A DNA stretch of 64,000 nucleotides, from assembly GCA_027676805.1 (NCBI GenBank), contig JAQENU010000006.1:192958-256957 (forward strand), read 5' to 3'. Source of the stretch: Coprobacillaceae bacterium UN01-12pH3A (GTDB taxonomy: Bacteria; Bacillota_I; Bacilli_A; Erysipelotrichales; Coprobacillaceae). Below are positions 32,647-64,000 of the stretch, piece by piece (the stretch's first letter is position 1; every line of letters begins with the position of its first letter). The translations under genes and the position numbers were made by a program. The notes under the pieces are model-generated. The model worked only from the letters and a program-made list of their open reading frames with translations. It was not told where the DNA came from and made no database searches.

Positions 32647-34119
32647 TTATTCTAATTGAATACGTTTGGTTGCTATTTTATCTGTAAATGCAGCATCATG
32701 TTCAACGAAGATCATCGTCGGCTGATACTCTAAGATGAGATTTTCAATCTGAACACGGGATAAGACATCGATATAATTGAGGGGTTCATCCCAAATATAT
32801 AAGTGTGCCTGCTGACTGAGACTGCCGGCAATAAGCACTTTTTTCTTTTGTCCCGCACTGAATTCTTCAATATTCTTCTCGAACTGAATTCTTGAAAAAT
32901 CGAGTTTTCTTAGAATCGCTTTGAATAAACTTTCATCAATTCCGGCATTTAAAGCATATTCTTTTAAATTCCCTTTTAAAAAAGCGGTATCTTGTGACAC
33001 ATACGAAATCTTTAATTGATTCTTAATGACGACAGTGCCTGAATGCGGAATATCCTGCCCCAATAATAATTTAATAATACTTGATTTTCCACTGCCGTTT
33101 TTACCGATCAATGCCACTCTTTCTCCAACGCAAACATTAAAGCTGAGATCTTGGATAATCGGACGATCATAAGCAATGCTTAAATGATCGACATACAGCA
33201 TCTGATTGCTGTGAAACTTTAATGGGTGAATAGCAAGTGATTCTGCTTCTTCAATATTTTTAAGCAGTTTTTCTTTTTCATTTAACTGATCGCTTCGTCT
33301 TTTCTCCATGGTCTTTGAACGTTTCATCATTTTAGCGGATTTATGCCCGATGTAGCCGCGATCAGGTCTTAACCCAGAGATACGCTGTCCCTTTTTGGTG
33401 CTTTCTACTGCATCTGACCATTGCGATGTACGCTTGGCCGCTTCATTTAAACGTTTAATATCTTTCTTTAAACGCTGATTCTCATCAAGCTCATACTGAT
33501 CCTGATAGTCTTTATTTTGTTTCCATGTACTGTAATTTCCTTTTTGCACTTCAATATCAGCCTTGTTGATGGATAATACATGATCGATACAGCCATCTAA
33601 AAAGGTACGGTCATGACTGATTAAAATAAAGCCATTCTTTTTGTTTAAATAATCACTGACTATCTTACGACCATTCCTATCTAAATGATTGGTTGGTTCA
33701 TCGATTAATAAAAAGTGATGTTCCTTTAAAAATAAGATAGCAAGCATTATTTTAGTCTGTTCCCCTTTTGATAATGTGGAAAACATTTGATACAGTGCTT
33801 CATCAGGAATTTCCAGTAATGAAAATTCTTTGTAAATCTGCCAGTGTTCTATGTTTGGTAGCATCTCTTCAATAATATTGATGGTTAAATCATCTTTAAT
33901 AGAAAAAGGAAAATAATCAAATTCGATATCTGCACTGATTGTTCCCTTATATTCATATTCTCCCATCAATAGCTTTAAAAAGGTTGTTTTTCCTCTTCCA
34001 TTTCTGCCGATAAAGCCAAGTTTCCAATTCGTATCAATCTGAAAGCTTACATCGTGGAAAATATCGTCAAATGATGAATCATAGGAAAATGTTAATTGGG
34101 ATATATTTATTAATGCCAT
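32647..34119 (-). CDS. ABC-F ribosome-protection protein, Lsa type
   Basis: 490 residues, two NBDs and no membrane segments. NBD1: Walker A GRNGRGKTT (about 38-46), LSKGEQ, LLIDEPTNHLD. The interdomain linker (about 200-300) is long and basic (KRLNEAAKRTSQW, KSAKMMKRSKTMEKRR). NBD2: GKNGSGKSS, FSAGQKKK, IWDEPLNYID. The NWKLGFIGRNGRGKTT start and linker match the Lsa family (LsaA, VgaA relatives), which dislodge lincosamides, streptogramin A and pleuromutilins from the ribosome. The leader upstream carries attenuation elements, as in other antibiotic-induced ABC-F genes. Exact subtype and spectrum are not decidable from sequence alone. Confidence 0.85.
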   Translation of the reverse strand: MALINISQLTFSYDSSFDDIFHDVSFQIDTNWKLGFIGRNGRGKTTFLKLLMGEYEYKGTISADIEFDYFPFSIKDDLTINIIEEMLPNIEHWQIYKEFSLLEIPDEALYQMFSTLSKGEQTKIMLAILFLKEHHFLLIDEPTNHLDRNGRKIVSDYLNKKNGFILISHDRTFLDGCIDHVLSINKADIEVQKGNYSTWKQNKDYQDQYELDENQRLKKDIKRLNEAAKRTSQWSDAVESTKKGQRISGLRPDRGYIGHKSAKMMKRSKTMEKRRSDQLNEKEKLLKNIEEAESLAIHPLKFHSNQMLYVDHLSIAYDRPIIQDLSFNVCVGERVALIGKNGSGKSSIIKLLLGQDIPHSGTVVIKNQLKISYVSQDTAFLKGNLKEYALNAGIDESLFKAILRKLDFSRIQFEKNIEEFSAGQKKKVLIAGSLSQQAHLYIWDEPLNYIDVLSRVQIENLILEYQPTMIFVEHDAAFTDKIATKRIQLE

Positions 34120-34292
34120 AAGTGGTCCTCCTTATAATCAAAAAAGATTGCAAGAAATTACAATCCTTTTTAAGCATAATAAAAAGAAGATATATAATTT
34201 CTTGCTTGGACACACTGAAAATCGCCATTATTTGGCTTCGTGCATCCTATTTTTTAGCAAGAAATTTTATACATCTTCTCATCCCCTTTGTT
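34120..34292 (-). promoter_or_regulatory. attenuator leader of the Lsa-type gene
   Basis: The minus-strand leader contains (1) a short uORF at 34254-34274, (2) AATTTCTTGCT within the uORF (34256-34266), (3) its perfect 11-nt complement AGCAAGAAATT (34196-34206), and (4) a second AATTTCTTGC (34150-34159) in the loop of a terminator whose stem is AAAAGGATTG / CAATCTTTTT (34141-34170). Segments 2 and 4 compete for segment 3. A ribosome stalled on the uORF would free segment 3 to pair with segment 4 and break the terminator, allowing transcription of the ABC-F gene. Confidence 0.75.
34254..34274 (-). CDS. leader peptide MYKISC of the Lsa attenuator
   Basis: Six codons plus stop, ATG preceded at 8 nt by AAAGGGG. 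Too short to function as a protein; its job is presumably ribosome stalling in the presence of drug. An overlapping alternative of 11 codons starts at the upstream ATG but sits directly on the ribosome site, so it is less likely. Confidence 0.6.
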   Translation of the reverse strand: MYKISC

Positions 34293-34298
34293 ACTTTA

Positions 34299-34327
34299 AA
34301 TATAGGCTATTTTTAACTTTTTAGCAA
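34299..34327 (-). promoter_or_regulatory. promoter of the Lsa leader
   Basis: Minus-strand -35 TTGCTA (34322-34327), 17-nt spacer, -10 TATATT (34299-34304); start near 34292, about 18 nt before the uORF. Confidence 0.65.
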
Positions 34328-34442
34328 CCTATTTATTCATCTTTTTAAATAAAAAATAGCATAGCTAAGTTGTTTAACATCTGGAGTTGCCAAACAAAAA
34401 CTAATAAAATCTCTAGCGTTCCTATAAGGATGGGGGAAGTTA

Positions 34443-34530
34443 TCACGACGATTCTTTATCATTCACAAACTCAATTAAATCGATAATATGAGCATAATTC
34501 CACTCTATAAGTTCCGTTTTTCTTCTCCTC
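34443..34530 (-). pseudogene. possible frameshifted 3' remnant after the HisRS-like gene
   Basis: In a frame shifted by one from the HisRS-like gene, 29 codons remain open and read TELIEWNYAHIIDLIEFVN near their end before TGA at 34443. There is no start codon. It could be the true C-terminus of the upstream protein separated by a one-base shift, or a decayed neighbour, or chance. The remaining 34331-34442 shows no gene. Confidence 0.25.
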
Positions 34531-35457
34531 TTATGAAACAGCTGCAAGAAATCTTTCTAAGCCCATACCACTTATCAAACAGCGTTCTTTTTTATTTCCA
34601 AGCATTTGATAAGTCCAGTCAACAAATCCACCGTCAGCTATCTCAACGGTTTCATTTCCTTGTTTGATCGATAATTTGAAATTGATACCTTTATAATAAT
34701 TATTATCAACATCATCATTATGAATTGATAACTCTATATTAGGAAAAATAAGTTTGATAGTTTCAACCATTCTGTCGAAAAATCCGTCATTATCTTTGTA
34801 ACCGTTTCTTTTGCGTAGAATAATAGAGAAACGAACATTTTCTATTTCATTTAAGAGATCTTTATAATAGGTTAAGTGCTTTTCTAACAAAATTTTTTCA
34901 CAAGTATAAGATCCTGTATCTATACCGGATGAAACCATACAATATAAGCCAAAATGTGAATATAAACCGTTACCTACAAAATTTTGCGCTCTTATTGCCC
35001 TAGCAGTAGTAGCCATGTGGAGTGGTATGATATTATTTTCTTCCTTTCTTTTTAATTTATCAGCAATAATTATTGCCAACATATTTGAGGGGTCTGCAAG
35101 TGTTTCTGTCCCTCGTAGAGCACTTACTACGTTATATTGATCTACGGAGCCAAAAACGCTGCAGCTACCTAATGGAGCAGAGGGAGAAAGCATAATCGTC
35201 TTAATATCCATATTGTGTGCTTTTCTCAATAATTTTGATTCCAAAGTATAAAATTCTTCTGGGTCTATACTGCTAGGGATAGTAAATCTATTTAGCTGGT
35301 ATGACTTTAGAATATCCGTTGCAGTTAAAGTATTTGCTTGTCTATCAAACACTTCTAATAGAAGTGAGTTCAAATCTGATTTTGATAGAGCTGATAACTT
35401 ATCCACTATATTCTTATCCCCAATTTTGTTTGTAATTCTACTTAAAATATCACTCAT
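34531..35457 (-). CDS. class II aminoacyl-tRNA synthetase-like (HisRS/HisZ-like) protein
   Basis: 308 residues. Start at 35457 (MSDILSRITNK) with GGAGG 7 nt upstream. RAIRAQNFVGNGLYSHFGL (about 165-183) resembles motif 2 of HisRS, and the stretch from YYKGINFKLSIK through EIADGGFVDW to ISGMGLERFLAA (about 258-306) mirrors the HisRS/HisZ pattern YYTGxxFE...GGGRYD...GFAxGLERL. No anticodon-binding domain is visible and the protein ends immediately after motif 3, so it is not a complete tRNA synthetase. It overlaps the nucleotidyltransferase gene by 8 nt, hence translational coupling. Could be an amino-acid-activating or binding paralogue; function unknown. Confidence 0.55.
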   Translation of the reverse strand: MSDILSRITNKIGDKNIVDKLSALSKSDLNSLLLEVFDRQANTLTATDILKSYQLNRFTIPSSIDPEEFYTLESKLLRKAHNMDIKTIMLSPSAPLGSCSVFGSVDQYNVVSALRGTETLADPSNMLAIIIADKLKRKEENNIIPLHMATTARAIRAQNFVGNGLYSHFGLYCMVSSGIDTGSYTCEKILLEKHLTYYKDLLNEIENVRFSIILRKRNGYKDNDGFFDRMVETIKLIFPNIELSIHNDDVDNNYYKGINFKLSIKQGNETVEIADGGFVDWTYQMLGNKKERCLISGMGLERFLAAVS

Positions 35458-36271
35458 AGTTATCCTCCATACTGTTACTTTCAAAATGATTTTTGAGTAA
35501 ATCTTGAAGATACTGTAATGCAACTCTTTCAGCTTCAACCTTTTTGACAATAGGACTTTGTGATAATTCCTCTCTTAACTCAAGATACAGGTTGATAGTA
35601 GCCTGCAAAGCATTAACACAGCTTTCATATTCATGGGCAGCAACCGTCTTTTCTAATGCTTCAATATATTGGGGTGCGTCCAATTCAATTTTTCTAACTC
35701 CACGAGGTAATTTTCCTAAGTGGAGCTGTATTAATGGGGCAAGTACTGATTGTCTTAAAAAAGATAAAAAATCAATTGTTTCAAATAGTTCTCTACGTCC
35801 AATCTTCGTACAAGCGTAATGAACCCAAATCCAAAATCTATCTTCAATCCACTGTAAGTTTGGAGTTGGGAAGTATGCTTCTTTTTTAGAATAAGTTTCT
35901 GTTATGCAGTTGTTTTCTTCATAGAGAATAGCTGAATCTTCAACCCTATCTAATAAACCATCTAAGGTTGTAAACTTAAAATCAACATGAAGAACAGGGG
36001 AATCATAGAGGGAAATTATCAATCGAGGTTCTCCAACGTGTTCGCCAGTAAAAGCAGAAACTAATGTTCCAAACTGTTCCACAATAAGGAATCTCTCTTC
36101 GATAACTTCTTCATAGGATTTATCATCTGCTACAATCAGAAAATCCAAATCAGAATACTCATCTAACGATTTTGTGATATAAGAACCGCTAATTGCAAGT
36201 CCTATTATCCTACTATCTCTTTTTGAAAATTCTAATACATTTTTTATCATTTCCTGTTGTGTTTTAGTCAT
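35450..36271 (-). CDS. nucleotidyltransferase (antibiotic NTase-like fold)
   Basis: 273 residues. The catalytic signature GLAISGSYITKSLDEYSDLDFLIV (GS...DxD) spans about residues 24-47. A third acidic residue is likely in HVDFKF (about 116-121). The C-terminal half is helical (WIEDRFWIWVHYACTKIGRRE and onward), similar to aminoglycoside or lincosamide nucleotidyltransferases, but the sequence is not a clear member of a named resistance class. It forms an operon with the HisRS-like gene. The promoter region upstream has a palindrome at about -40. Could modify a small molecule or a tRNA/protein partner; not decidable here. Confidence 0.7.
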   Translation of the reverse strand: MTKTQQEMIKNVLEFSKRDSRIIGLAISGSYITKSLDEYSDLDFLIVADDKSYEEVIEERFLIVEQFGTLVSAFTGEHVGEPRLIISLYDSPVLHVDFKFTTLDGLLDRVEDSAILYEENNCITETYSKKEAYFPTPNLQWIEDRFWIWVHYACTKIGRRELFETIDFLSFLRQSVLAPLIQLHLGKLPRGVRKIELDAPQYIEALEKTVAAHEYESCVNALQATINLYLELREELSQSPIVKKVEAERVALQYLQDLLKNHFESNSMEDNYE

Positions 36272-36332
36272 AATATAACACCTCTCACTTTCTTTTATTA
36301 GCTATCAATCCAGCATAATTGTGCATAGGAAT

Positions 36333-36372
36333 ATTATATAATGAGGAAATAAAAAAAATAGGTCACTTGACC
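36333..36372 (-). promoter_or_regulatory. promoter and candidate operator of the nucleotidyltransferase operon
   Basis: Minus-strand -10 TATAAT (36333-36338) with a poor -35. A palindrome GGTCA-CT-TGACC at 36361-36372 is centred about 40 nt upstream of the predicted start, the place where Crp/Fnr-type activators bind class II promoters. The adjacent Crp-like gene is an obvious candidate, but this is inference. Confidence 0.45.
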
Positions 36373-36378
36373 CGAAAT

Positions 36379-36415
36379 AAAAAAGTATTGAATAATTATT
36401 ATCCAATACTTTTTT
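36379..36415. terminator. bidirectional terminator after crp-like gene
   Basis: Twelve-bp stem AAAAAAGTATTG / CAATACTTTTTT, 13-nt AT loop. Confidence 0.85.
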
Positions 36416-36425
36416 GAAAATATAC

Positions 36426-37046
36426 TTATGTTGTAGGAAGATTCTTTAATACCTCTCGCTGATTAATTACACTAAATCTTTTGTTTTCATAAACAATCAG
36501 ATGTTCTTGTACACATTCATTTATAGCACGATTAATGCTTCTAATTGGAGCGTTTACTTCGCTAACAAGCTGTTTTTTGGTAAGCAGATTTAATTCACTT
36601 CTATAATAGTGTAAGGATATACACCTCAGAAGTCGTTCTTTAACACTTAAAGATGATAATTCTTCAATTAATTTGGCATTTACAACTAATTTACTGGATA
36701 TTTCTCGAATCAGAAATTTTGTAGCTTCAAAATCTCCCTTTAACCAGTTTAAAAAATCATCTCTATGAAGTTTATATACATTACAATCTGTGAAAGCGAC
36801 AATTTCAACAGGTTTTTTCCCATCATTAAATTGTTCCATTTCTCCAAAAAAACTACCACTTTTATAAAGATGAATAGTTGAGATGTTTCCTTTTACATTT
36901 AAGATGAATGCTTCTGCAATACCGTCAATCATAAGAATTACATATTCATTTTCTTGCTCAGCAAAAAGAATAGTCTCTTTCTTTTTATACGTTTTTTTAA
37001 CAAGCTTCTTTTTAATATCTTCATTCATGAAATCAATTAAATGCAT
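36426..37046 (-). CDS. Crp/Fnr-family transcriptional regulator
   Basis: 206 residues. The second ATG (37046) is chosen because AAGGAGGG abuts the first at 37052. A cyclic-nucleotide-binding-like beta-barrel (about 10-115, with GSFFGEMEQFND where cAMP-binding proteins have GE...) is followed by a long dimer helix and a winged HTH (about 150-200: LTKKQLVSEVNAPIRSINRAINECVQE). No N-terminal Fnr cysteines. Its own promoter lies under an 18-bp palindrome, suggesting autoregulation. Neighbours suggest it controls the nucleotidyltransferase/HisRS-like pair. Effector unknown. Confidence 0.85.
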   Translation of the reverse strand: MHLIDFMNEDIKKKLVKKTYKKKETILFAEQENEYVILMIDGIAEAFILNVKGNISTIHLYKSGSFFGEMEQFNDGKKPVEIVAFTDCNVYKLHRDDFLNWLKGDFEATKFLIREISSKLVVNAKLIEELSSLSVKERLLRCISLHYYRSELNLLTKKQLVSEVNAPIRSINRAINECVQEHLIVYENKRFSVINQREVLKNLPTT

Positions 37047-37058
37047 ATTCATCCCTCC

Positions 37059-37081
37059 TTACCAAATTTTTGGTAATTATA
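37059..37081 (-). promoter_or_regulatory. promoter and autoregulatory palindrome of the crp-like gene
   Basis: Minus-strand extended -10 TGATATAAT (hexamer 37076-37081) is immediately followed by TTACCAAA-N2-TTTGGTAA (37059-37076), a palindrome with perfect 8-bp arms covering the expected transcription start and ending at the ribosome site. Confidence 0.55.
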
Positions 37082-37163
37082 TCATCTTTCAATTAGTTAG
37101 GTAAGATAGTAAAAATATATTTATAATAAAAACGATATGACATGCAATCATACCGTATTTGTT

Positions 37164-37820
37164 TTAAAGCCTTTGGTCTTTTATTAAAGTTAAAACATCG
37201 TTTAAGCTATCGACAATATCATGTGTCATTTCAGCATATTCTTTTTCCGGATATTTCATATCAGGAATGCAGATCACACGAATATCAGCGCTGTGTGCTG
37301 CCTGAATACCGGCTTCGGAATCTTCTAATACTAGAGCCTCATCTGGATGGACTCCGAGTTTTTCGCAAGACTTCAGGAATACTTCCGGATTAGGTTTTCC
37401 TTTTGAAACTTCATCACCACAGATAGAAGCATCGAAATAAGAAGAGATCTTTGCATTCTCTAAAATAACATCTACACGATGACGGTTAGAAGAAGTCGCT
37501 ACAATTGTTTTATAGTTATTCTCTTTCAAATATTTTAAAAGCTCAATTAACCCGGGTTTAACAGGTACCCCTTTTGTTTCAAATAAATCCGCCATATAAG
37601 CATGTACCTTCCCAATAACCTCCTCAATAGGAAAATCTTCTCCAAATTCTTTATGAAATTGATCATAGATTCCGGCAATAGGTTTACCGAGTAAGGTTTT
37701 ATAAAATTCTTTTGTCATGGTATGTCCCAGTTTATTACATTCAATCACATAGCCGTCAAAAGTGACTCTTTCACTATCGATCATAAGACCATCCATATCA
37801 AAAATAACCGCTTTAAGCAT
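37164..37820 (-). CDS. HAD-family hydrolase, beta-phosphoglucomutase-like
   Basis: 218 residues. Motif I AVIFDMDGLMIDSE (nucleophile and acid Asp at about 8 and 10), motif II VATSSNR, motif III Lys in SKGKPNPEVF, motif IV VLEDSEAGIQAA. The helical cap lies between about 15 and 80. This is the PGMB/GPP-like subgroup that acts on small sugar phosphates as phosphatase or mutase; substrate not decidable. Unlike the HAD-like protein at 3860, all catalytic residues are present. Monocistronic. Confidence 0.9.
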   Translation of the reverse strand: MLKAVIFDMDGLMIDSERVTFDGYVIECNKLGHTMTKEFYKTLLGKPIAGIYDQFHKEFGEDFPIEEVIGKVHAYMADLFETKGVPVKPGLIELLKYLKENNYKTIVATSSNRHRVDVILENAKISSYFDASICGDEVSKGKPNPEVFLKSCEKLGVHPDEALVLEDSEAGIQAAHSADIRVICIPDMKYPEKEYAEMTHDIVDSLNDVLTLIKDQRL

Positions 37821-38051: not shown

Positions 38052-38290
38052 ATACAAACAAACCCAACGATAAAGAGAGTAGTTATCTGAAATGTTTCAG
38101 CGAGTTAATGCAGGTGAGAGATTAACACAGGAAAGATGGCGAAGCGCACTTTGGAGGGGAATATCTGAATTCATAGGATATTCGGTAAGCTTACCTTACA
38201 AGCGAGAGTGGATATGAGGTCAACTTATATCAACGAGAGTGGTACCGCGATATATTCGTCTCTTGATTAATTTCAAGAGGCGTTTTTTAT
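38052..38290 (+). ncRNA. T-box riboswitch, probably tyrosine-specific
   Basis: AGAGAGTAG opens stem I. A distal hairpin GTTAAT...ATTAAC carries the loop GCAGGTGAGAG. The classic T-box sequence TGGTACCGCG is at 38240-38249; its TGGT pairs with an ACCA tRNA end. A terminator CGTCTCTTGA / TCAAGAGGCG followed by six T residues spans 38257-38288. The segment GGGGAA-TAT (TAT at 38162-38164) aligns with GGGAA-TGG of the trpS T-box in this window, pointing to a Tyr specifier; tRNA-Tyr has discriminator A, consistent with TGGT. The specifier call is tentative because stem I was not folded computationally. Confidence 0.85.
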
Positions 38291-59242: not shown

Positions 59243-60771
<1,529 letters not shown>

Positions 60772-60938
60772 AAGGAGAAAAAGGTTCTGTTCAGTTTTGA
60801 GTGGAGACACTCAGAAGACAAGAGATCATTGAAAACTGGATAATAAGATGAAAAAGATATATTAGAAAGATCAGGAGAATAAAAGGATCTTTCCTAATAG
60901 TCGAAAAAACTAAGAAAAAGTAACAAAAGCAAATCTAG
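60772..60938 (+). other. 16S-23S spacer without tRNA genes
   Basis: About 167 bp. It contains the 3' arm of the 16S processing stem (60784-60798) and the 5' arm of the 23S stem (60832-60847). No cloverleaf, CCA end or T-loop sequence (GGTTCRAATC) is visible. Confidence 0.8.
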
Positions 60939-63843
<2,905 letters not shown>

Positions 63844-63858
63844 TAGAAGAAGAAAGAA

Positions 63859-63874
63859 CTTATTATCCAGTTTT
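63859..63874 (+). repeat. 23S processing stem, 3' arm
   Basis: CTTATTATCCAGTTTT, exact reverse complement of 60832-60847 in the 16S-23S spacer. Confidence 0.8.
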
Positions 63875-63892
63875 GAGTGAGAGCTCAGAGGA

Positions 63893-64000
63893 ATCCGGTG
63901 ATGATGGGGATATGGACACACCTGTAACCATCTCGAACACAGAAGTTAAGCATATCAACGGCGAAGATAGTGAGGGATCGCGAAAATAGCAGATTGCCGG
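63893..64000 (+). rRNA. 5S ribosomal RNA, cut at the window end
   Basis: Starts near TCCGGTGATGATGG and contains the conserved CTCGAACACAGAAGTTAAGC. The closing strand GATTGCCGG pairs with the start, so only the last few bases are missing. Confidence 0.92.

What the first reader, a model, noticed from the sequence alone, without database searches (positions are those of the whole stretch)
34120..34327. Ribosome-stalling attenuator of an Lsa-type antibiotic-resistance gene
All parts can be read: a promoter, a six-codon uORF (MYKISC) with its own ribosome site, and a repeated AATTTCTTGC sequence present both in the uORF and in the terminator loop. A single complementary AGCAAGAAATT lies between them. 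Stalling on the uORF would let the middle segment pair with the terminator loop and open the gene. The logic matches drug-induced ABC-F genes, but this leader peptide and pairing scheme look new to me.
Basis: partly seen in the sequence, partly recalled or inferred. Interest (0 to 1): 0.7.

Follow-up and report, generated by a model that had tools for sequence, protein, structure and literature searches.

The report
Antibiotic-sensing RNA switch before resistance gene
The stretch of RNA ahead of an antibiotic-resistance gene looks like a switch that a drug-stalled ribosome flips on, and relatives of the same switch sit in front of similar resistance genes in many other bacteria.

Summary
Comparison supports a ribosome-controlled transcription attenuator of the Lsa-type ABC-F gene at 32647-34119. 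Free RNA folds into anti-antiterminator plus terminator; with a ribosome held on the uORF AUG, the middle segment pairs with the terminator loop before the terminator arm emerges. Antiterminator pairs form in 97.0% of cells over 18 related leaders. The logic is known (vmlR, cplR). New, as far as the open-access library shows: one RNA element, without an Rfam match, precedes Lsa-type genes in Erysipelotrichales, Clostridia, Negativicutes and Paenibacillaceae, plasmid lsa(E) (leader joined to the gene start in 102 plasmid records), and cfr (18 of 71 fetched Paenibacillaceae loci). The peptide is probably not the sensor: codon 2 is a stop in 57 of 63 distinct Paenibacillaceae leaders, all three stops used, and Ser-Cys fits RNA pairing. 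The likely sensor is a ribosome held at the start codon by peptidyl-transferase drugs. Against: uORF sequence matters in vmlR. Nothing was tested experimentally.

The parts
34299..34327 (-). promoter-like -35 TTGCTA (34327-34322) and -10 TATATT (34304-34299), spacer 17
   Evidence: scan, (not above chance by itself); Beduini has TTGATA-17-TATATT at the same place while sequence further upstream does not align well
34283..34288 (-). Shine-Dalgarno site of the uORF, AAGGGG
   Evidence: identical in Beduini; G-rich SD sites are visible before the uORFs of the order-level leaders. The filter required an SD, so it is no independent evidence
34254..34274 (-). uORF MYKISC*
   Evidence: MYxFSC/MYxISC uORFs in most order-level relatives
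34257..34266 (-). segment 1, AATTTCTTGC, inside the uORF
   Evidence: pairs with segment 2
34208..34248 (-). apical hairpin of the anti-antiterminator
   Evidence: MFE fold; GCCA/TGGC in the window against GTCA/TGAC in Beduini keeps the stem
34178..34205 (-). segment 2: core GCAAGAAATT 34205-34196, with the downstream part that pairs back to the uORF SD/AUG region
34140..34171 (-). intrinsic terminator hairpin with U tract (-11.4 kcal/mol; -16.9 with flanking pairs)
   Evidence: same place relative to the gene in Beduini, with one stem position changed
34150..34159 (-). segment 3, AATTTCTTGC, in the terminator loop and 3' arm; pairs with segment 2 as antiterminator
34127..34132 (-). Shine-Dalgarno site of the ABC-F gene, AAGGAGG region
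32647..34119 (-). Lsa-type ABC-F ribosome-protection protein, 490 aa
   Evidence: NCBIfam NF000167 720.1 bits (cut-off 750) and NF000355 462.9 bits (cut-off 380); best solved relative Lsa(A) 7nhk, 433.5 bits over residues 1-489

Best explanation
34120-34290 (minus strand) is a ribosome-controlled transcription attenuator of the downstream Lsa-type ABC-F gene. Without drug, a ribosome quickly passes or leaves the six-codon uORF; segment 1 pairs with segment 2 (anti-antiterminator), the terminator forms, and transcription stops at the U tract. Drugs that block the peptidyl-transferase centre (pleuromutilins, lincosamides, streptogramin A) hold the ribosome at the uORF start codon. Its footprint, to about +16, covers most of segment 1; segment 2 is freed and pairs with segment 3 as it leaves RNA polymerase, so the terminator cannot close and the gene is transcribed. 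Sensing depends mainly on initiation at the uORF AUG, not on the peptide. Shown here: parts, conservation, covariation, switch in constrained folds, replacement of the peptide in relatives. Inferred: termination, drug stalling, induction.
For: Parts and fold. Near-identity in Beduini although the region upstream of the promoter differs. Three-segment pairing in 43 of 77 leaders against 17 of 770 shuffles (9 nt). SD + start + segment 1 in 56 of 81 leaders. Antiterminator helix kept in 97.0% of 234 cells over 18 leaders, 3 pairs with changes on both sides, against 46-63% when slid; segment 1:2 structure 91.3% of 288 cells. Stepwise folding of the window: antiterminator complete at RNA end 34150 with the footprint blocked, terminator when free. 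Of 134 leaders, 117 had a scorable segment 2/3; antiterminator formed in 117 of 117 blocked and 5 of 117 free at the end of segment 3, and in 84 and 0 twelve nt later. Model R1 hits: of 130 fetched loci 110 precede Lsa-type genes, 18 cfr, 2 neither; 11 of the 130 are re-finds of the first 80 loci. Published: such drugs stall ribosomes at uORF start codons (toeprints, passages of PMC12421871), and the 30S toeprint on the vmlR uORF lies 16 nt downstream of the A of AUG (passages of PMC9226507).
Against: No expression data. In vmlR the uORF sequence does matter: the MRK variant induces less well than MIN (passages of PMC9226507; PMC10201436, calls it crucial), which speaks against full independence of the codons. 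The terminator stem is A+T-rich and was not flagged by the scanner. At equilibrium only 3 of 14 leaders folded with the footprint blocked switch fully (window, Beduini, L006, as I read the structures); the others keep the terminator and need co-transcriptional ordering. At +12 nt, 33 of 117 no longer hold the antiterminator. Leaders for one search were picked for segment 2/3 complementarity, so only the free/blocked contrast is informative. Unguided RNAalifold on 26 leaders gave 8 pairs, 1 with double-sided change. Double-changed pair counts are reached by 28 of 500 and 54 of 500 shuffles. 25 of 81 leaders did not pass the uORF+segment-1 filter, 4 of them short of upstream sequence. In the induced fold the gene's SD can pair with the U tract.
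Confidence: 0.87

Rival explanations
1. Peptide-dependent stalling: the nascent MYKISC peptide with drug in the ribosome causes arrest at a specific codon, as for ErmCL/MsrDL-type leaders.
For: Codons 5-6 read Ser-Cys in 74 of 146 distinct leader starts; Tyr at codon 2 is common in the order-level set; uORF sequence affects induction in vmlR (passages).
Against: Codons 2-4 vary; Ser is TCT in 71 and TCC in 3 of 74, Cys TGC 70 / TGT 4, as a pairing constraint predicts; the last base of the Cys codon covaries with segment 2 (pair 33-89, CG 14, UA 2, UG 1, unpaired 1); codon 2 is a stop in 57 of 63 distinct Paenibacillaceae leaders; MR*, MRN*, MRK* and MK* versions exist.
Confidence: 0.07
2. Amino-acid-starvation attenuator of the trp/his type, sensing a charged tRNA (for example Tyr or Cys).
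For: A short uORF with a three-segment switch is the classical layout (recalled).
Against: No run of one codon; relatives with AUG-stop uORFs decode no tRNA beyond the initiator; downstream genes are Lsa-type or cfr in 128 of 130 fetched loci.
Confidence: 0.01
3. Mainly translational control: the leader hides the gene's Shine-Dalgarno site, and the terminator is leaky or unimportant.
For: Translational attenuation adds to transcriptional control in cplR and vmlR (passages); in the MFE structure the region from the terminator's end to the start codon is partly paired.
Against: In the centroid structure that region is unpaired, and the U tract follows directly on the hairpin that overlaps segment 3.
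Confidence: 0.04
4. Chance repeats next to an ordinary terminator; no regulation.
For: A+T-rich sequence; the 10-nt triple arises in 1% of shuffles (20 of 2000).
Against: Conservation in Beduini and many distant leaders, covariation, and placement of model hits before Lsa-type or cfr genes in 128 of 130 fetched loci.
Confidence: 0.01

Closest known systems
vmlR leader of Bacillus subtilis (uORF MIN)
   Same: Drug-stalled ribosome on a very short uORF; anti-antiterminator, antiterminator and terminator stem-loops; ABC-F gene for pleuromutilin/lincosamide/streptogramin A resistance (passages of PMC9226507).
   Different: uORF MIN* of three codons, whose sequence affects induction; NusG-dependent pausing and an SD-sequestering hairpin are described there and were not tested here. 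I did not align the vmlR leader itself, so homology is open.
lsa(A) uORF (predicted MAGN), cplR (MR[I/M]) and vmlR2 (MK[L/Q])
   Same: Same gene class or drug spectrum; short uORF found by conservation, tested by reporters for cplR (passages of PMC10201436).
   Different: Reported consensuses are 3-4 codons and none is MxxxSC* or AUG-stop; the LsaA search there used an 80% identity cut-off. I did not see that paper's supplement and did not align these leaders.
are5sc and tiaA leaders of Streptomyces coelicolor
   Same: Ribosome-mediated attenuation; toeprints show drug stalling at the uORF start codon (passages of PMC12421871).
   Different: Other ABC-F subfamily (ARE5) and other uORFs (MLV; MVGDDDISG).
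lsa(E) of enterococcal plasmids
   Same: Leader matches model R1 at 76.4 bits, with uORF MYNFSC* and a terminator-like hairpin containing the repeat; leader found in 107 plasmid records, joined to the gene start in 102.
   Different: About 160 nt lie between segment 3 and the gene, against about 30 in the window; protein 57.7% identical to the window's. I found no account of this leader in the open-access library.

Membership tests
Lsa family of ABC-F ribosomal protection proteins | NCBIfam NF000167 at or above 750 bits | tested here: not met
   720.1 bits over the full length; the general NF000355 cut-off is met (462.9 vs 380). Called Lsa-type here, not Lsa.
Lsa family of ABC-F ribosomal protection proteins | Closest solved relative is Lsa(A), with full-length alignment including the inter-domain linker | tested here: met
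   7nhk, residues 1-489 against 1-496, 433.5 bits; next best 206.3 bits
Ribosome-mediated transcription attenuators of ARE-ABCF genes | Short uORF with its own SD upstream of an ABC-F gene | tested here: met
   (sequence only; translation not shown)
Ribosome-mediated transcription attenuators of ARE-ABCF genes | Mutually exclusive anti-antiterminator, antiterminator and intrinsic terminator | tested here: met
   (sequence, covariation and folding only)
Ribosome-mediated transcription attenuators of ARE-ABCF genes | Premature termination without drug and read-through with drug, dependent on uORF translation | not testable with these tools
   needs RNA ends, reporter or in vitro transcription
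Known Rfam family | Match at the family's gathering score | tested here: not met
   no gathering match on the window leader; best sub-threshold match 29 bits vs 55.8 needed; no match on the leaders of 8 relatives at E <= 0.5
Peptide-dependent stalling leaders (ErmCL/MsrDL type) | Conserved peptide sequence required for arrest | tested here: inconclusive
   comparison speaks against: AUG-stop in 57 of 63 distinct Paenibacillaceae leaders with all three stops; but codons 5-6 are conserved in the MxxxSC leaders and no experiment was possible

The most novel reading that the evidence does not exclude
One mobile RNA element, reusable before unrelated resistance genes (Lsa-type ABC-F and cfr methyltransferase), senses peptidyl-transferase-centre antibiotics through the initiation codon alone. 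Its uORF can shrink to AUG-stop, under selection for an immediate stop (TAA, TAG and TGA all used), so the sensor is the drug-held initiation complex; the clinical plasmid gene lsa(E) is under the same undescribed switch.
Probability: 0.58. Interest if true: 0.75.

Novelty: new variant of a known kind. Interest (0 to 1): 0.6.

Why it matters
If true, drug-inducible control of Lsa-type resistance is common in several groups of Bacillota, includes the plasmid gene lsa(E), and is shared with cfr, so resistance may be underestimated in uninduced tests. The AUG-stop leaders give a clean natural test of whether drug sensing needs any nascent peptide; the relation between uORF sequence and inducibility is named as a matter for follow-up in PMC10201436 (passages).

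Tried and rejected
Rfam: no match on the leader. T-box: the one at 38058 is separate. Peptide-specific stalling and amino-acid attenuation: see rivals. Unguided RNAalifold on a wide MAFFT alignment: weak, probably because apical hairpins differ in length. The first alignment A2 had one wrong coordinate (L003); it was redone as A3 with 26 of the 28 rows, L071 and L004 dropped, three tails trimmed. R1 has only 8 base pairs, so it rests mostly on sequence. The phylum sample gave 9 of 392 genomes and the class of Flavonifractor 16 of 291: the element is far from universal; those scans use stricter filters that lose weak matches. lsa(B) and an Enterococcus gilvus homologue show no R1 match at E <= 1, a Paenibacillus urinalis plasmid gene does (35.1 bits). 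L157 and L168 are model hits without an Lsa-type or cfr gene in the stretch fetched. Seven of 77 Paenibacillaceae leaders were left out of the codon-2 count for lack of an ATG at the set distance; L169 and L170 among them have an AUG-stop further off. The tally script missed the uORF of L091 and the gene and uORF of L192, seen by eye; only the L192 gene is corrected in my totals, and L143 counts as lsa though only a remnant stands there. Literature searches for an AUG-stop antibiotic uORF, a cfr leader in Paenibacillus and an lsa leader listed none that I recognised; only titles, abstract starts and passages of five papers (PMC10201436, PMC9226507, PMC10219788, PMC12421871, PMC8116656) were seen, and no subscription papers.

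Full report
WHERE AND WHAT. The window's 16S rRNA gene is 98% identical to that of Beduini massiliensis, an Erysipelotrichales species; no whole genome is held for the window. The gene at 32647-34119 (minus strand, 490 aa) is an ABC-F protein whose best family model is Lsa (720.1 bits, under NCBI's cut-off of 750) and whose best solved relative is Lsa(A), aligned end to end. The finding lies directly upstream.

OBSERVATION. On both strands of the 64 kb the ten bases occur four times, three of them here. The leader folds far better than shuffles (z -6.81; 0 of 200 as stable). The 10-nt triple followed by a T run arises in 20 of 2000 shuffles, so on this leader alone it is suggestive; comparison decides it.

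NEAREST RELATIVE. In Beduini massiliensis (L001, protein 93% identical) the -10, SD, uORF and all three segments are identical, while sequence upstream of the promoter does not align well. Within the leader most differences lie in the apical hairpin of the uORF stem, where GCCA/TGGC becomes GTCA/TGAC and the stem is kept; one change weakens the terminator stem.

DISTANT RELATIVES. I read 80 loci holding Lsa-type genes (412 candidates encode a relative, the best 80 kept). With the window, 77 of 81 have at least 150 nt upstream; of these, 43 contain a 9-nt three-segment pairing followed by a T run, against 17 of 770 shuffles (8 nt: 61 of 77 against 130 of 770; 10 nt: 21 of 77 against 6 of 770). 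56 of 81 pass a filter for SD, start codon and segment 1. Typical uORFs are MxxxSC* or MxxxSCK*. A covariance model of the uORF stem (R1, 26 sequences, 8 pairs) finds this leader and, at E <= 1, no other place in the window except its own antisense; in the 80 loci its plus-strand matches lie within about 0.55 kb upstream of the Lsa-type gene, by my reading of the table (many of these built the model or resemble it).

COVARIATION. On 18 leaders of the window, Beduini and its order (alignment A4), the antiterminator helix, segment 2 with 3, forms standard pairs in 97.0% of 234 cells, with three pairs changed on both sides (10 cells); slid versions give 46-63%. 28 of 500 shuffles reach the number of double-changed pairs, none reach the covariation score. 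The uORF stem gives 91.3% of 288 cells, two double-changed pairs (54 of 500 shuffles reach that), slid 50-67%. I wrote both structures from the sequences, so the percentage paired leans towards them; the double changes at columns 97-169 and 100-166 (UA, GC, UG, AU) are the stronger evidence. The window's terminator stem sits in another register than the relatives'; in both, segment 3 spans loop and 3' arm.

SWITCH. Folding the growing window RNA at 11 end points: free RNA forms the uORF stem from 34196 onward and the full terminator by 34140. With nucleotides -15 to +16 around the uORF AUG blocked, segment 2 pairs with segment 3 as it emerges (5 pairs at 34155, 10 at 34150) and the terminator does not form at any step tested. 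The isolated antiterminator is -19.9 kcal/mol, the terminator -11.4 (-16.9 with flanking pairs). Over 134 leaders, 17 had no scorable segment 2/3; in the other 117 the antiterminator forms in 117 blocked and 5 free at the end of segment 3, and in 84 and 0 twelve nucleotides later. Against this, at equilibrium only 3 of 14 full leaders tested switch, as I read the structures, so distant relatives would depend on co-transcriptional order.

THE PEPTIDE IS PROBABLY NOT THE SENSOR. In the 74 of 146 distinct leader starts that read Ser-Cys at codons 5-6, Ser is TCT in 71 and TCC in 3, Cys TGC in 70 and TGT in 4, while codons 2-4 vary (up to 4 of the 74 have an earlier stop). That is what pairing to segment 2 demands. 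In Paenibacillaceae the uORF is usually AUG followed at once by a stop: of 77 leaders examined 7 lacked an ATG at the set distance, and 70 gave 63 distinct sequences, with codon 2 TAA 43, TAG 9, TGA 5 and six sense codons. Use of all three stops points to selection for an immediate stop, not merely for a pairing sequence. Limits: the SD lies about 12 nt from these AUGs, further than in the MxxxSC leaders (my count), and translation is not shown; and in vmlR the uORF sequence affects induction (MRK less efficient than MIN; PMC9226507, passages). MK*, MR*, MRN* and MRK* also occur here. Published toeprints show lincosamides, a pleuromutilin and a streptogramin A holding ribosomes at uORF start codons (PMC12421871, passages). 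A ribosome there covers to about +16, which masks most of segment 1.

SPREAD AND TARGETS. R1 at E <= 1e-4, centre genome included each time: 19 of 148 genomes of Beduini's order, 9 of 392 of its phylum sample, partly the same genomes, 73 of 104 of the family of Paenibacillus chitinolyticus, 20 of 150 of the class of Propionispora (Negativicutes), 16 of 291 of the class of Flavonifractor (Clostridia). Of 130 fetched loci, 109 precede an Lsa-type gene by script, plus L192 by inspection; 18 precede cfr; 2 neither. 11 of the 130 are re-finds among the first 80 loci, and 9 of the 130 lie in loci used for the model. The loci were the best-scoring ones plus 40 Paenibacillaceae hits that I chose, many of them second hits in a genome, so 18 of 71 is not a rate. 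The cfr gene of L086 meets the Cfr cut-off (629.7 vs 550 bits); the other 17 were called by similarity to it (73-95%). In L143 a 50-residue lsa remnant stands between the attenuator and cfr, a hint of how the switch changed target. Plasmid lsa(E) has the element too (76.4 bits; uORF MYNFSC*): the leader is in 107 plasmid records, 102 of them Enterococcus, and leader plus gene start covers at least 80% in 102 records. lsa(B) shows no match.

COMPARED WITH WHAT IS KNOWN. The logic is that of vmlR (PMC9226507, passages), cplR and the predicted lsa(A) uORF (PMC10201436, passages), and are5sc/tiaA (PMC12421871, passages). So the window holds a member of a known kind. The element, its AUG-stop form and its use before cfr and lsa(E) I did not find described in the open-access library (listings). 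No Rfam match was found. Induction, termination and stalling remain to be shown by experiment.

Noticed in passing
window 34430-37160: In Beduini (L001) the HAD-like gene (window 37164-37820) directly precedes the attenuator; in the window about 2.7 kb lies between, with a streptomycin-adenylyltransferase-like protein (35450-36271, PF04439), an ORF with no Pfam match (34531-35457; its longer reading had no NCBIfam match) and a CRP-like regulator (36426-37052).
   Followed up: partly
   Followed up: partly
L086, L140, L145, L146 and 14 other Paenibacillaceae loci: The same attenuator with an AUG-stop uORF precedes cfr-type methyltransferase genes, uORF about 420-570 nt before the cfr start; in L086 a frame with PSID lies between, and L157 has a 40-aa ORF with PSID.
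   Followed up: partly
L143 323-966: A 50-residue lsa remnant lies between the attenuator and a cfr-type gene.
   Followed up: no
L157: An attenuator without lsa or cfr in the stretch fetched; a frame further downstream looks like ribosomal protein L4 (my reading of the sequence).
   Followed up: no
window 38058-38266 and 59244-64000: A T-box leader and an rRNA operon.
   Followed up: no
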